From Gulosibacter massiliensis (GTDB lineage Bacteria; Actinomycetota; Actinomycetes; Actinomycetales; Microbacteriaceae): a DNA stretch of 15,824 bases. Every line of letters starts with the position of its first letter. Positions within the stretch are counted from its first letter, which is position 1. Shown here piece by piece: positions 3,571 to 12,711 of this stretch. The stretch lies in assembly GCA_945901035.1 (NCBI GenBank), contig CAMDKN010000009.1, positions 1-15,824 on the forward strand. Direction: 5' to 3'. Under the pieces are notes generated by a model, which had not been told where the DNA came from, made no database searches, and worked only from the letters and a program-made list of their open reading frames with translations. A program made the position numbers and the translations under genes.

Positions 3571-5121
3571 TTACGCCTCCGTAATGCGAATGCGCGGGTC
3601 GAGGGCGGAGTACGCCAGGTCAGCGAGAATGTTGAAAATCACGGCGGCGACTCCCGTGACCAGGAACACGCCCATCACGAGGTTGACGTCCACCTGGGAC
3701 AAACCCTGGTTGAACAATGCCCCCATGCCCTGCCACGCGAACACTCGCTCAGTGATGATCGCCCCGCCAATCACCGCACCGAAATCAAACGCGACGATTG
3801 TGGCAATCGGGATCAGGGTGTTTCGGAACGCGTGTCGCATGATGACAGTGGTCTCGGGCAACCCCTTGGCTCGCGCGGTTCTCACGTAGTCCTGGTTGAG
3901 GACCTCGAGCAACGTCGCTCGGGTGTACCGCGTGTAGCCCGCCACCGAGATGATCATGAGGGCGATAGTGGGCAGGATGAGGTGCGTTGACGAATCGAGC
4001 AACCGCATCCACGTGTCCTCGTCCTTCGCGAGGATTGGCGTGTTTGCTCCGATTGTGGAGATGACCCCGGACCGCAACGGGATGATCTGGACGTAATCGC
4101 CCCACCGCATGAACATTTGGTCGAGGACCAGTGGCGCGGTCGCGAGAGCACCCGTGATCGCCGCGACGCGCATCGCTTCGATTCGGTCGTCACCCCCGAA
4201 GAAGAATCCCGCGGCGACACCGACCCCGGCCAGCAGTGCGGCGACGGCGGCGATGGCGAGCGGGTGGTTGAAGTAGAACCACACAAACTGAAGCGGGAAC
4301 CACAGCGCGATGACCGCCAAAACTGTGGCTCCGACCGAGAACTGCATCGTCCGTTTGGTCAGGTTGGAGGTGACGAACAGCATCAGCGCCCCCAACCCCG
4401 CTCCGAGGAGTGCGATACCGATGATTCCGATCGAGGGGCTGCCGAACCACTGGGTGATGTCCGCCAACACCAATACTCCGGTTGTCAACACGAGCGTGAT
4501 GATTGCTGACCGGATTCGCAGGCGAAGGTGACCCCCGACAACGGCCTGGACGATCAACCCGAGGACGAGCCCGATTCCCAGTGCGATCCACCAGGGAATC
4601 GCCGGTTCACCCAAGAATTCGTTGAATCGGATGGCCCCGAATTCTTTGAGCAAAACGGCGACCCAGAAAATGGGGAGTGAGTAAAAAATGAACGCGGTGA
4701 ACGTGACGGTGTAGTCGTACCCGCTGTACTGGCGCAGTGCAACCGTCATACCGATCGCAACACCGAAAAGAATCGAGAGGACTGTCGCCAAGATCACGAG
4801 TGACAAGGTCGAGGCCATCGCGTTTGCGAGCGCACTCGCCACGGGTTCGTCTCCGCGAATGACGGAAATACCCAAATTGCACTGACCGATCACACAGCCC
4901 GCAGCCCCGCCCAGCCACTTGAAATAGCGGAAAAACGGCGGGGTATCGAGGTCGAGCTTTTCGGTGAGCGTCTCGCGCTTGGCGACGGATGCAGGGTCGT
5001 TCTGGATTCGCAGATCCTCGAGCGGGTCACCCGAATTGGCGGTCAGCATGTACACAAAGAAGGACGCAACCAACAAAACGACCAGCGTGGCCGCGAGGCG
5101 GCGTGTGATAAAACTTAACAT
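3571..5121 (-). CDS. ABC importer inner-membrane permease, DppB/OppB type, with extra membrane insert
   Basis: This is the first membrane subunit of the importer. I start it at ATG 5121 (516 residues) because MLSFITRRLAATLVVLL matches the usual DppB beginning; a TTG at 5166 would add 15 polar residues and lacks a better ribosome site. The first span is at about 9-26. Spans at about 105-127 and 138-158 follow. The EAA coupling loop lies at about 402-439 (VLNQDYVRTARAKGLPE...). The C-terminus ALDPRIR is typical. DppB proteins are usually about 310-340 residues. The excess is an insert at about 175-337 holding five or six additional hydrophobic segments between the third canonical span and the EAA half. 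Two cysteines (C76, C81) sit in the external loop. The gene overlaps nothing and is followed 2 bases later by the DppC-type gene. Confidence 0.93.
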   Translation of the reverse strand: MLSFITRRLAATLVVLLVASFFVYMLTANSGDPLEDLRIQNDPASVAKRETLTEKLDLDTPPFFRYFKWLGGAAGCVIGQCNLGISVIRGDEPVASALANAMASTLSLVILATVLSILFGVAIGMTVALRQYSGYDYTVTFTAFIFYSLPIFWVAVLLKEFGAIRFNEFLGEPAIPWWIALGIGLVLGLIVQAVVGGHLRLRIRSAIITLVLTTGVLVLADITQWFGSPSIGIIGIALLGAGLGALMLFVTSNLTKRTMQFSVGATVLAVIALWFPLQFVWFYFNHPLAIAAVAALLAGVGVAAGFFFGGDDRIEAMRVAAITGALATAPLVLDQMFMRWGDYVQIIPLRSGVISTIGANTPILAKDEDTWMRLLDSSTHLILPTIALMIISVAGYTRYTRATLLEVLNQDYVRTARAKGLPETTVIMRHAFRNTLIPIATIVAFDFGAVIGGAIITERVFAWQGMGALFNQGLSQVDVNLVMGVFLVTGVAAVIFNILADLAYSALDPRIRITEA

Positions 5122-5217
5122 GCTTTCCCAACCGACCTTCCCGTCGTTGGAAAGGTCCTTCGGCAATCATAGCCATCCCCGCACCCTCCCCACCAAAGTC
5201 CCGCACGAAACGGCGAA

Positions 5218-8022: not shown

Positions 8023-11000
8023 CTAGTCGACGAACGCCGACGGATCAGGACACGCACACGCGAGGTTTCGATCACCGTACGCACCGTCCACGCGGCGAAC
8101 CGGTGGCCAGTACTTGAGGTTGTCGACCCTCGAGAACAATCCCGACACGGTGTTCGCGGCGATCGCCCGGAACGGGTACGCAGCGACCTCGCGCGAATAC
8201 GCGTGGTTCCACTCGCCCGCGATGAGCGACTCCGCGGTGTGCGGGGCGTTGACGAGCGGGTTGTCATCGGCCGGCCACTCGCCCGCCGCGACCGCATCTG
8301 CTTCGCGCTTGATGCCGATCATCGCTTCGATGAACCGGTCGATCTCGTCGATGTCTTCGCTCTCGGTCGGCTCGACCATGAGCGTTCCCGGAACGGGGAA
8401 CGACATCGTCGGGGCGTGGAATCCGTAGTCGACGAGGCGCTTGGCCACATCGTCAACGGTGACTCCCGTTTCCGCCGTGAGCGGGCGCAGGTCGAGGATG
8501 CACTCGTGCGCGACGAGCCCGTTTTCGCCCGCGTACAGCACCGGGTAGTGCTCGCGAAGTCGGGCCGCGATGTAGTTCGCGGACAACACCGCCGAGGCGG
8601 TCGCGTGGCGAAGACCGTCCGATCCCATCATGCGCACGTACGCCCATGAAATCGGCAGGATGCTCGGGCTTCCGAAGGGCGCCGCCGAAACCGGTCCGCC
8701 GCCGTGAAGGAAGGGTCCGGCACCGCCGGACGCCGAATCGAATGCCGGGTGAGCGTGCGCTTGCGCCATCGGGTGTCCGGGCAGGAACGGCGCGAGGTGG
8801 GCTTTGGCCCCGACCGGTCCGACGCCGGGACCGCCGCCGCCGTGCGGGATGGCGAAGGTCTTGTGCAGGTTGAGGTGCGAAACATCGCCGCCGATGTCAC
8901 CGTATCGTGCGAACCCGAGCAGAGCGTTGAGGTTCGCTCCGTCGATGTAGACCTGTCCGCCGGCGGCGTGAACCGCATCGGTGATCGCGCGGATACCGTG
9001 CTCGTAGACCCCGTGGGTGGACGGGTAGGTGACCATGAGGGCGGCGAGACGATCGCCGTGCTCGGCGATTTTCGCGTTCAGGTCGTCAATGTCGACGTCG
9101 CCGTTCTCCTTGCAGGACACAACGATGACCTTCATGCCGGCCAGGACAGCGGACGCCGCGTTGGTTCCGTGGGCGCTGGAGGGAATGAGGCACGTGTCAC
9201 GGTGGTCGTCCCCGCGAGACAAGTGGTAGCCACGAATGGCCAGGAGTCCGGCGAGTTCGCCCTGGCTTCCCGCGTTGGGCTGGAGGCTGATGGTGTCGTA
9301 ACCGGTCAGTTCCGTCAGCCACTCCTCGAGCTGCGAAATGAGCAACAGGTAGCCGTTCACGTCACTCGCGGGGGCGAACGGGTGCATCCCCCCGAATTCG
9401 CGCCACGTCACGGCTTCCATTTCCGTCGCCGAGTTGAGCTTCATCGTGCACGAACCGAGCGGAATCATTCCGCGGTCCAGCGCGAAGTCCTTGTCCGCGA
9501 GGCGCTTGAGGAACCGCATCATCGACGTTTCGCTGTGGTGCGTGTTGAACACCGGGTGCGTGAGGATGTCGTCCGATCGAACGAGAAGCGCCGGGATAGC
9601 GGTGTCGCCAATCGTGGCGTCAGTAGCGCGAAGCGGCTCGGGGCTCAGACCGAAAATCGGGTCGATCAGTGGGTCGTCCCCGCTGGCCAAGATTCCCGTC
9701 GCAAACCCGGTCGACAGTTCATCAAACGACAACTGCACGATGTCCGAATCGACGACGTGAATGAGAAGCCCCGCTGTGTGAGCCGAGGCAGCGAGAGACG
9801 CCGCCTTGCCCGGCACACGAATCTGCACGGTGTCAAAGAACTCCGAGTGAACAATGTCGTGACCCGCTGAGGCGGCACGTCGGGCGAAGCGCTGGGCGCG
9901 TTCGGCGACATTGAGAGCAATCTGGCGCAGACCGGCCGGTCCGTGATAGACCGCGTACATCGCCGCGAGCACCGCGAGAAGAACCTGTGCAGTACAGATG
10001 TTCGACGTTGCCTTGTCCCGACGGATGTGTTGTTCGCGGGCCTGCAGAGTGAGGCGATACGCGGGTCGGCCGTCCGCATCACGCGAAACACCGATCAGTC
10101 GACCGGGCATCTGGCGTTCGAGGCCCTCGCTCACAGCGAAGAATGCCGAGTGCGGTCCACCGAATCCGAGCGGCACACCGAATCGCTGCGACGATCCGAG
10201 AACGATATCGGCTCCGAGCGAACCGGGCGAGACGACGAGGTTGAGGGCGAGCAAATCGCTTGCGACGATGACGACTCCGCCGACGCCCTTGACCGCGGCG
10301 ATGTCGGCTGCGATGTCGCGGACGCGTCCGCTCGAGCCAGGGTTTTGGATGAGGGCCCCGAACGCGCCGCCCGCAACCGCGGCCGCAGCTTCGCCACCAG
10401 CGAAGTCGACGAACTTCAGGGTCACACCAATCGGCGCGGCGCGGGTTTCGAGAACCGCGCGCGTCTGCGGGAAGGCGTCGGCGTCAACGAGGAACACCAT
10501 GGACTCGCTGTCGGAAACCCGGCGAGCCATCAGCATCGCCTCGGCCGCGGCGGACGCTTCGTCGAGCATGCCCGCGTTTGCGGTTCCCATTCCGGTGAGG
10601 TCACACACCATGGTTTGGAAGGTGATGAGGGCCTCGAGTCTTCCCTGCGAAATTTCCGGCTGGTACGGCGTATAGGCGGTGTACCACGACGGGTTTTCAA
10701 AAATGTTCCGCTTGATGACACTCGGCATGACCGCGTCGTAATACCCGAGCCCGATCATGTTTCGGCCGACGGTGTTCTCGTTCGCGATCGCGCGCAGTTC
10801 GGCGATGGTTTCCCGCTCGCTCGCCGCGTCCGGGATTCGCGACAGGAACGACTCCTGGCGGATTGCGGCGGGGACAGCACTGTCCATTAGTTCGTCGAGG
10901 GTCGAGTATCCGAGAGACCCGAGCATGAGGCTCTGGGCGTCACCGGTCGTTCCGATGTGGCGGCGGCGGAAATCGTTCACGGGCTCTTCCGCAATCAGTG

Positions 11001-11355
11001 CTGCGTAGGCGTCCGCCGAGATGAGTTCCCCGAGGCTGGACACGCGTACCGAAAAGAGCCACCCGTTCCCGTAGGGATCCGAGTTCACCAGTTCCGGTGA
11101 GTCGATGACCGCTTGGTTCGCTTCGACGATTTCACCGGACACAGGTGCGAACAGTTCGCCCACCGACTTGGTCGATTCTGCCTCACCGACGATGGATCCG
11201 GCCGCGATGGTCTTGCCCACCTTGGGCAGGTCGACATAGACGATGTCGCCGAGCGCGTCGGCGGCGTACTGGGTGATCCCGACGACCGCGGTGTCGCCGT
11301 CGATGCGAACCCATTCGTGTTCGCTGGTGTACTGAAGTTCTGCGGGGATGCTCAT
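8023..11355 (-). CDS. gcvHP: Glycine cleavage system H protein fused to P protein (glycine decarboxylase)
   Basis: One open frame of 1110 codons encodes two normally separate subunits. Residues 1-125 are a complete GcvH with the lipoyl-accepting lysine K63 in [16 protein letters not shown] and a normal H-protein end ([10 protein letters not shown]). Residues 126-1110 are a complete GcvP of normal length: FRRRHIG at 129-135, [16 protein letters not shown] in the middle, the PLP lysine K832 in [16 protein letters not shown] (equivalent to about K707 of a free P protein), and the standard end [16 protein letters not shown] decarboxylates glycine and passes aminomethyl to the lipoyl arm of H; T and L complete the cycle. 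ATG 11355 overlaps the gcvT stop in ATGA and has AAAGG upstream. At the joint a GTG (10978-10980) preceded by GGAAGAG could start a separate P protein. One C less in the preceding CCC run would end H at a TGA overlapping that GTG. A true fusion, a recent indel or a sequence error are all possible. Confidence 0.93.
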
Positions 11356-12464
11356 GCGCGTGCCTTTCGAGAGTAGAACGGTGGAGTGATGACTGTTGCG
11401 GGGATTGATGTGCCACGCACGTCGATGTCGACGACCGTGCCGGGTTCGGCAAAGTCGGGCTCAACGAGTGCGAAGGCGATGGGATAGCCGAGCGTTGGCG
11501 ACAACGCCCCGCTCGTGACGATTCCGATGGTGCGGCCGTTGGCGTGGACCGCATAGCCGGCGCGACCGGCTCGTTTGCCTTCGGACTGGAGCCCCACCAG
11601 AACGGCGGCTCCGGCCGAGACTCCGGCCATGACGCCCTCGCGTCCGACGAAGCTGTCTTTGGTCAGATCCACGGCGCGCGCCGCGTTGACCTGGGACGGC
11701 TTGAGCGAGACGTTCAATTCGTGCCCGTACAGGGGCATACCGGCCTCGAGCCGAAGGGTGTCGCGACACGCGAGCCCACAAGCCTGTAATCCACGGCTCT
11801 CGCCCGCGACGGTCGCCGCGCGCCACAGTTCGGCGGCGTCGGTCGCGGCAATGTACAGTTCGAATCCGTCTTCGCCGGTATACCCGGTGCGGGCGACGAG
11901 GACGGGAGTTCCGCGGAAATCCGCGGGAATGCAACGGTAGTAACCAAGTTCCGCAAGACCCTCGATGGTCAGCCCGTCGACGTGCTCAAGGATGTCAGCC
12001 GAGTTCGGGCCCTGAACGGCAATGAGGGCCACGGTGTCCGAGTCGTCACGGACAACACAGTCGAATCCGCGGGCTCGCTCGCGAATTGCCTCGGCGGCAA
12101 CAAAACGGTTACCCGCGTTCGCCACGACCATGAATTCTTGGTTCCCCGTGCGATAGACCACGAGGTCATCCAGAATGCCCCCGTCCTCGTTGAGCAGGAG
12201 GGAATACTTTGCGCGGCCAACGGGAATCGTCGACAGGGTTCCCGACAAGGCGTAGTCCAGTGTGGCCCCGGAGCCCGGTCCGACCAACAAAATTTCCGCC
12301 ATGTGCGACAAATCAAAGATTCCAGCGGCGGTGCGAACTGCGTGGTGTTCCGCGAGATCGGAGGAATAGCGAACGGGCATGTCCCAACCGGCGAAGTCCG
12401 TAAAGGACGCGCCCAATTCGCGATGAACCGAATCGAGGGGAGACAGTGTGAGGGGCTCTGACAC
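11352..12464 (-). CDS. gcvT: Glycine cleavage system T protein (aminomethyltransferase)
   Basis: GcvT takes the aminomethyl group from lipoyl-H, transfers the one-carbon unit to tetrahydrofolate and releases ammonia. The 370-residue product has the normal family length. It shows the N-terminal [12 protein letters not shown] and [11 protein letters not shown] motifs, the catalytic aspartate region [11 protein letters not shown] (D99/D100), and the folate-site motif [14 protein letters not shown]. The reading frame stays open upstream to 12545, but that part is the second riboswitch aptamer; I therefore start at GTG 12464, five bases after GGAG. An in-frame GTG at 12470 is the alternative. The stop overlaps the start of gcvHP by four bases (ATGA), so the two are translationally coupled. 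Expression should be switched on by glycine through the tandem riboswitch in the leader. Confidence 0.95.
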
Positions 12465-12519
12465 AAACACTCCGAAAGTCAACGCGCGGCCGGCGATCGG
12501 CGACGGGACTCCCCCTCTG

Positions 12520-12682
12520 TTTCTGTGCCTGAGAGTTTCGCGCATCGTGCACGCTTTCCCCTACGGCGGAAGCCTGGGCTTCGCTCTTCAGAGTGACCTA
12601 GCGGTGCGGTACGCGGACCTGAGAGATTGGCGGGGAGGCTTGCTCCTTCGGTGACCGGCTCGAAACCGGTCTCTCCCGCAGC
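12520..12682 (-). promoter_or_regulatory. Tandem glycine riboswitch of the gcv operon
   Basis: Read on the minus strand, two aptamers follow each other. Aptamer I (about 12618-12680) begins GCGGGAGAGACC, contains ACCGAAGGAGCAAGCC and ends ATCTCTCAGG. Aptamer II (about 12520-12598) begins GTCACTCTGAAGAGC, contains GCCGTAGGGGAAAGC and ends AACTCTCAGGCA. The paired GGAGAG/CTCTCAGG stems and the purine-rich cores are the hallmarks of the gcvT glycine riboswitch. The linker is about 19 bases. The expression platform lies between 12519 and the gcvT start at 12464. No clear U-tract terminator is visible there, so control of ribosome access to GGAG is the likelier mechanism (inference). Glycine binding should raise expression of gcvT and gcvHP. 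Confidence 0.92.
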
Positions 12683-12711
12683 GCTAATGGGTCGTGTTCA
12701 CTTGTGGGTTC

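What the first reader, a model, noticed from the sequence alone, without database searches (positions are those of the whole stretch)
10960..11000. In-frame fusion of glycine cleavage H and P proteins at a relic GTGA overlap
The sequence shows one uninterrupted frame from the GcvH start to the GcvP end. H keeps its lipoyl lysine (K63) and a natural-looking end, and P keeps its PLP lysine (K832), so both halves should be functional. At the joint the bases read GAGCCCGTGAAC. With one C fewer, H would end ...AEEP-TGA, and that TGA would overlap the GTG start of P in a GTGA overlap, the same kind of coupling used by gcvT/gcvH (ATGA) just upstream. So a one-base insertion in a CCC run appears to have turned coupled genes into a fusion. 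A tethered lipoyl arm on the decarboxylase would be a notable architecture; a sequencing indel is the dull alternative.
Basis: partly seen in the sequence, partly recalled or inferred. Interest (0 to 1): 0.75.

Follow-up and report, generated by a model that had tools for sequence, protein, structure and literature searches.

The report
Lost stop codon fuses GcvH–GcvP
In one draft genome of an uncultured bacterium, two neighbouring genes of the glycine-breaking enzyme system have become one continuous gene because the stop codon between them changed; the parts are ordinary, the joined form was not found elsewhere in our searches, and it still needs confirmation from raw reads.

Summary
The open frame is real in this assembly: 8023-11355 (-), 1110 aa, 117 kDa; H is residues 1-123 (K63), then Glu-Pro, then P from Val126 (K832). 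In 9 of the 11 same-genus genomes with a readable joint, H and P already share one frame, separated by TAA plus one codon; G014 reads GAG TAA CCC GTG against GAA GAG CCC GTG here. So CCC is not an insertion: TAA became GAG by substitution, and P's ribosome-binding GGAG weakened at the same place. Among listed rows spanning H and P, only the window lacks a stop (1 of 53 from 398 family genomes, 1 of 10 from 396 phylum genomes; truncated lists). No fused relative surfaced in the protein collection. Both halves show long-term purifying selection. Most likely a recent, lineage-specific stop-loss fusion that tethers H to P. It rests on one 80%-complete draft assembly, and a 98%-identical P (P0001) is catalogued as a separate 985-aa protein, so the fusion is species- or strain-limited, or an artefact.

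The parts
12597..12688 (-). glycine riboswitch, first aptamer
   Evidence: Rfam RF00504, 65.6 bits, E 5.5e-12
12510..12596 (-). glycine riboswitch, second aptamer
   Evidence: Rfam RF00504, 44.5 bits, E 2e-06
11352..12464 (-). gcvT; start at GTG 12464 is inferred from a GGAG five bases upstream; the mechanical ORF begins at 12545 inside the riboswitch
   Evidence: ORF; tblastn matches 73-85% identical in six loci; sequence. The name rests on reading and context; no family search was run on it
10987..11355 (-). GcvH part of the fusion, residues 1-123, lipoyl lysine K63
   Evidence: Pfam GCV_H 129.6 bits; most of the 60 free homologues printed are 123 aa long and end at the same place
10984..10986 (-). 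GAG (Glu124) standing where the nine in-frame relatives have TAA
   Evidence: codon alignment of joints
10981..10983 (-). CCC (Pro125), the one-codon spacer, identical in G014 behind its TAA; not an insertion
8023..10980 (-). GcvP part, residues 126-1110 plus TAG; former start GTG at 10978-10980; PLP lysine K832
   Evidence: Pfam GDC-P and GcvP2_C; the separate P0001 begins at the same codon; K832

Best explanation
A recent, lineage-specific loss of the gcvH stop codon (TAA to GAG) between two cistrons that were already in the same frame, one codon apart, made a single gene for an H-P fusion protein. Shown: the open frame, the arrangement in relatives, the substitutions, the weaker ribosome-binding match before P, intact catalytic lysines and long-term purifying selection on both halves. 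Inferred: the ribosome reads through to a 117-kDa protein in which the lipoylated H domain is tied to the N-terminus of P by a hinge of a few residues, takes the aminomethyl group from the P active site (its own or its dimer partner's), and still presents its arm to T, L and the lipoate ligase; a minority of free P may come from initiation at the old GTG. No free H was found elsewhere in the assembly.
For: Open frame and domains. 9 of 11 readable genus joints are in frame with TAA plus one codon before P's start. The fusion aligns without gaps over its length with G007, G014, G011 and G004 (G010 needs 18 gap positions). The predicted Shine-Dalgarno pairing before P is -6.1 kcal/mol in 7 of 9 relatives computed and -3.5 in the window, as expected once P no longer needs its own start. 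dN/dS of the window against 5 relatives is 0.032-0.062 for H and 0.044-0.065 for P. Of 10 other window ORFs compared with 7 loci, 8 had a match, and 7 of these matched to within two residues of their ends; the window's frames are open. One GCV_H match in the own genome; Lpd and a protein with the LplA/LipB catalytic domain are encoded. The model's H part matches solved H proteins (TMt up to 0.93) and its P part solved P proteins (TMt up to 0.85).
Against: A single draft assembly (79.94% complete, 2.15% contamination, 163 contigs), no reads, no second genome of the species. P0001, 98% identical to P, is catalogued as a free 985-aa P starting at the same codon. No fused protein was found as a cluster representative or among the 120 hits listed. 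dN/dS of P is slightly higher for pairs with the window (up to 0.065) than among the relatives (up to 0.054). H is described as a mobile substrate that meets P, T and L (PMC7227101, passages), so a tether could hamper the cycle. The genome is incomplete, so a second, free H could be missing.
Confidence: 0.62

Rival explanations
1. Consensus or assembly artefact: the stop was lost in the computed sequence (strain mixing, polishing or local misassembly), and the organism has separate genes like its relatives.
For: All 11 readable genus joints have a stop; the 98%-identical P0001 is catalogued as a separate protein; draft genome in 163 contigs; no second instance in the searches made.
Against: Against G014 the difference is three substitutions in six bases, not a single indel; flanking H and P align without gaps to four relatives, and other ORFs of the window are open; the ribosome-binding site changed in a way that fits loss of an independent start, although these bases overlap the joint and could change together by error too.
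Confidence: 0.2
2. The fused frame is real, but free P made from the old GTG start is the main P product and the fusion serves mainly as the H carrier, so P is in excess rather than strictly tethered one to one.
For: GTG is kept at the ancestral start position and a weak purine-rich match remains upstream.
Against: The predicted pairing with the anti-Shine-Dalgarno is weaker than in the eight in-frame relatives computed (-3.5 against -6.1 or -5.5); termination-coupled reinitiation is not possible without a stop (inference).
Confidence: 0.13
3. One-base insertion in a CCC run turned a GTGA overlap into a fusion.
For: Removing one C would give a TGA overlapping the GTG.
Against: Nine of 11 readable genus relatives are already in frame, and G014 carries the same CCC before the same GTG.
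Confidence: 0.02
4. The fusion is a damaged, decaying operon in a genome that is losing glycine cleavage.
For: Small genome; 41 of 398 family genomes have no match to the query.
Against: dN/dS of both parts far below 1; catalytic lysines intact; of 21 differences between window P and P0001, 5 are derived in the window, 4 in P0001, 12 ambiguous. These measure mostly the time before the fusion.
Confidence: 0.03

Closest known systems
Separate gcvH-gcvP of the same genus (for example G014/L007, and Microbacteriaceae bacterium MWH-Ta3, L035, taken to be G010 because contig length and place agree)
   Same: Same gene order, same frame, same H end, P start one codon after the stop
   Different: They keep a TAA between H and P and a GGAG before P; here TAA is GAG and GGAG is lost
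GcvP P-protein, single-chain type (PDB 4lgl/4lhd, 9uz6, 6i33)
   Same: GDC-P plus C-terminal domain, PLP lysine motif, same fold
   Different: Carries a whole H-protein at its N-terminus
GcvH H-protein (PDB 3a7l, 1onl, 3ift)
   Same: Full domain with lipoyl lysine in ESTKS, fold matched
   Different: Not free: its C-terminal helix continues through Glu-Pro into P
Lipoyl domains built into dehydrogenase-complex subunits such as E2 (recalled, not tested here)
   Same: Principle of a lipoyl carrier tied to an enzyme
   Different: Different enzyme system; no membership claimed

Membership tests
GcvH (PF01597) | Above Pfam cut-off over nearly the whole model | tested here: met
   129.6 bits against 22.2, positions 1-120 of 122
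GcvH (PF01597) | Lipoyl lysine present | tested here: met
   K63 in [10 protein letters not shown]; that this is the lipoyl site is recalled
GcvH (PF01597) | Lipoylated and accepts the aminomethyl group | not testable with these tools
   No experiment; a protein with the LplA/LipB catalytic domain is encoded
GcvP (PF02347 + PF21478) | Both P domains above cut-off | tested here: met
   545.2 and 191.6 bits
GcvP (PF02347 + PF21478) | PLP lysine | tested here: met
   K832 in [16 protein letters not shown]; its role is recalled
GcvP (PF02347 + PF21478) | Glycine decarboxylase activity | not testable with these tools
   No experiment
Recurrent family of H-P fusion proteins | More than one fused member | tested here: not met
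   None of 1367 candidates of 610-1942 aa scored with H residues 1-125; longest of the 120 listed hits 986 aa; no other stop-free spanning row in the truncated listings
Fusion by one-base insertion at a GTGA overlap | Relatives have P in another frame, with a TGA overlapping its start | tested here: not met
   9 of 11 readable genus joints are in frame with TAA; the other two (G003, G009) are out of frame, but their TAA/TAG ends before the P start

The most novel reading that the evidence does not exclude
This would be a natural glycine decarboxylase whose mobile lipoyl carrier protein is permanently tethered, the first as far as my searches reach: all H in the cell is tied one-to-one to P, so the cycle runs as a P-H enzyme visited by T and L instead of a free shuttle.
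Probability: 0.4. Interest if true: 0.62.

Novelty: new variant of a known kind. Interest (0 to 1): 0.38.

Why it matters
The glycine cleavage system is described as a set of proteins served by a mobile H protein (PMC7227101, passages). A natural strain in which H can only work while attached to P would test directly whether free diffusion of H is needed, and would give a ready-made design for channelled glycine synthesis or cleavage. The case also shows a simple route to enzyme fusion: genes spaced by a stop plus one in-frame codon are one or two substitutions from becoming one protein.

Tried and rejected
Indel in the CCC run: rejected by the joints of relatives. Pseudogene decay: not supported by dN/dS. 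Phage collection search with 161 bases around the joint and a degenerate joint pattern in viral contigs: no match, as expected for a chromosomal gene. Second free H in the own genome: none, but the genome is 79.94% complete. G008, 84% identical over 7.2 kb, could not settle the joint: its contig ends inside P.

Literature: seven searches, five aimed at fusions of H and P or of lipoyl domains or linkers (one search returned no paper), one at stoichiometry (27), one at stop-loss fusion (36). In titles and abstract starts listed I saw no natural H-P fusion; lists were cut (25 of 42; 20 of 21; 20 of 36; 12 of 19). Passages were seen in PMC12844395 (writes GcvP-GcvH for co-expression on one plasmid; 'fusion' and 'fused' do not occur), PMC6395887 (nothing on bacterial stoichiometry), PMC7227101 and PMC3711429 (frame transitions between adjacent genes, nothing on this case). 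No paper was read whole.

Its alignment (89 sequences: the fusion and 88 of the 240 found proteins) drew the first residues of many P rows to the start of H, which may have lowered quality.

Limits of the counts: the 53 and 10 spanning rows were counted by hand in truncated listings. P0001's cluster has 242 members that I cannot see; if representatives are not the longest members, fused members could be hidden there. One search has no dedicated positive control; the H part searched without that length bar gave 7995 scoring proteins of 8000 candidates. The -2.5 value of G003 was taken at a fixed distance and not at its own, out-of-frame start. In one search the permease ORF 3571-5166 shows a frame break against G008; the window's frame is open there, so I assign the break to G008, untested.

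Full report
What is there. The window is the whole of contig 9 of a draft genome of 1,196,294 bases in 163 contigs, 79.94% complete. On the minus strand lie two glycine riboswitch aptamers (12510-12688), gcvT, and then one open frame 8023-11355 of 1110 codons and a stop. It holds a GcvH domain (7-122), the GcvP domains (best stretches 131-549 and 918-1039), the lipoyl lysine K63 and the PLP lysine K832. gcvT and gcvH overlap by ATGA; the calculated mass is 117.3 kDa.

How it arose. Fifteen genomes of the genus are held, the window's own included. Of the 14 others the H-P joint can be read in 11: nine (G001, G002, G003, G004, G006, G007, G010, G011, G014) and two (G005, G009); G008, G012 and G013 give no joint. 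All 11 have a stop after H (ten TAA, one TAG). In nine of the 11, P follows in the same frame, the stop being followed by one codon and then ATG or GTG (in G007 that codon is itself ATG). G014 reads GCG GAG TAA CCC GTG AGT; the window reads GCG GAA GAG CCC GTG AAC. The CCC and the GTG are thus shared, and the stop codon stands replaced by GAG, with a silent GAG/GAA difference beside it. G003 and G009 are out of frame, but their stop ends before the P start.

The ribosome-binding site. In seven of nine relatives computed the last codon of H completes a GGAG six bases before the P start codon aligned with the window's GTG, with a predicted pairing of -6.1 kcal/mol to the anti-Shine-Dalgarno; G002 has -5.5, the out-of-frame G003 -2.5 (not measured at its own start). 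The window has -3.5. Loss of the stop and weakening of P's start signal lie in the same few bases. This fits a real fusion better than a random error, though it could be coincidence because the bases overlap.

Is it unique? Of 99 genomes searched as relatives (own included) 91 have a match, and in the listed rows only the window's genome spans H and P without a stop (list truncated). In 398 family genomes (357 with a match) the listed rows include 53 spans from H into P in one frame; 52 contain a stop, one, the window's, does not (hand count, list truncated). In 396 phylum genomes (323 with a match) there are 10 listed spans, again only the window's without a stop (same limits). In the protein collection, H residues 1-125 gave 1367 candidates of 610-1942 aa, none scoring, while H alone gave 7995 scoring proteins of 8000 candidates, the 120 listed being 118-126 aa. 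The full fusion as query gave 120 listed hits of at most 986 aa. One of them, P0001, is 98% identical to P and starts exactly at the former start. The fusion is therefore at most species- or strain-level, or an artefact. The closest free H listed is 96% identical; the H belonging to P0001 was not identified, and I draw no conclusion from that.

Is it working? Against five relatives (G007, G014, G002, G011, G004) dN/dS is 0.032-0.062 for the H part and 0.044-0.065 for the P part; among those relatives it is 0.023-0.063 and 0.032-0.054, so P is slightly higher in pairs with the window. dS is high, so the ratios are rough. Twenty-one amino acids differ between window P and P0001; polarised with 10 outgroup proteins, 5 are derived in the window, 4 in P0001, 12 are unclear. 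This shows constraint over the long term; if the fusion is recent it says little about the fused state itself. L protein (one match over cut-off) and a protein with the LplA/LipB catalytic domain are encoded. LipA had no match in this genome or in any of the 15 genus genomes, so the genus probably scavenges lipoate. The AlphaFold2 model (mean pLDDT 73.1, pTM 0.74) has H's last helix at 114-122, a low-confidence hinge at 125-127 and P's first helix at 127-133; 222 of 1110 residues are below 50, including parts of P near the active site. Foldseek finds solved P proteins and solved H proteins. The relative placement of the domains is not determined.

Mechanism, shown and inferred. Shown: continuous coding, conserved parts, lost stop, weaker internal start signal. 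Inferred: translation through the joint, lipoylation of K63, transfer of the aminomethyl group within the P dimer, and visits by T and L to the tethered H. PMC7227101 (passages) describes lipoylated H as a mobile substrate that meets the other three proteins; a tether makes this a different working mode. Some free P from the old GTG is possible.

Verdict. A well-defined, simple event with an unusual product, known from one draft assembly. The parts are ordinary; the architecture was not found elsewhere in the searches named here. Read-level confirmation is needed before it can count as a discovery.

Noticed in passing
G000 and the 14 other genomes of the genus: LipA (TIGR00510) is matched in 0 of 15 genus genomes, including 0 of 5 that are at least 90% complete, while an LplA/LipB-type catalytic domain and Lpd are present in the own genome: likely lipoate scavenging (the LipA control rang in 12 of 14 known genomes).
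   Followed up: partly
12510-12688 (-): Tandem glycine riboswitch ahead of gcvT, so the fused gene is probably glycine-controlled.
   Followed up: no
L127 (G008) about 2749-2750; window 3571-5166: The permease ORF is open in the window but its match in G008 changes frame in the middle: a frameshift in one of the two drafts, probably G008.
   Followed up: no
P0128: A 118-aa GcvH with five residues missing near position 88 and no source listed, otherwise nearly identical to the window's H.
   Followed up: no
3571-5166 (-): Permease-like ORF of 531 aa with a long hydrophobic stretch in its middle, longer than usual for such transporters (reading; usual length recalled).
   Followed up: no
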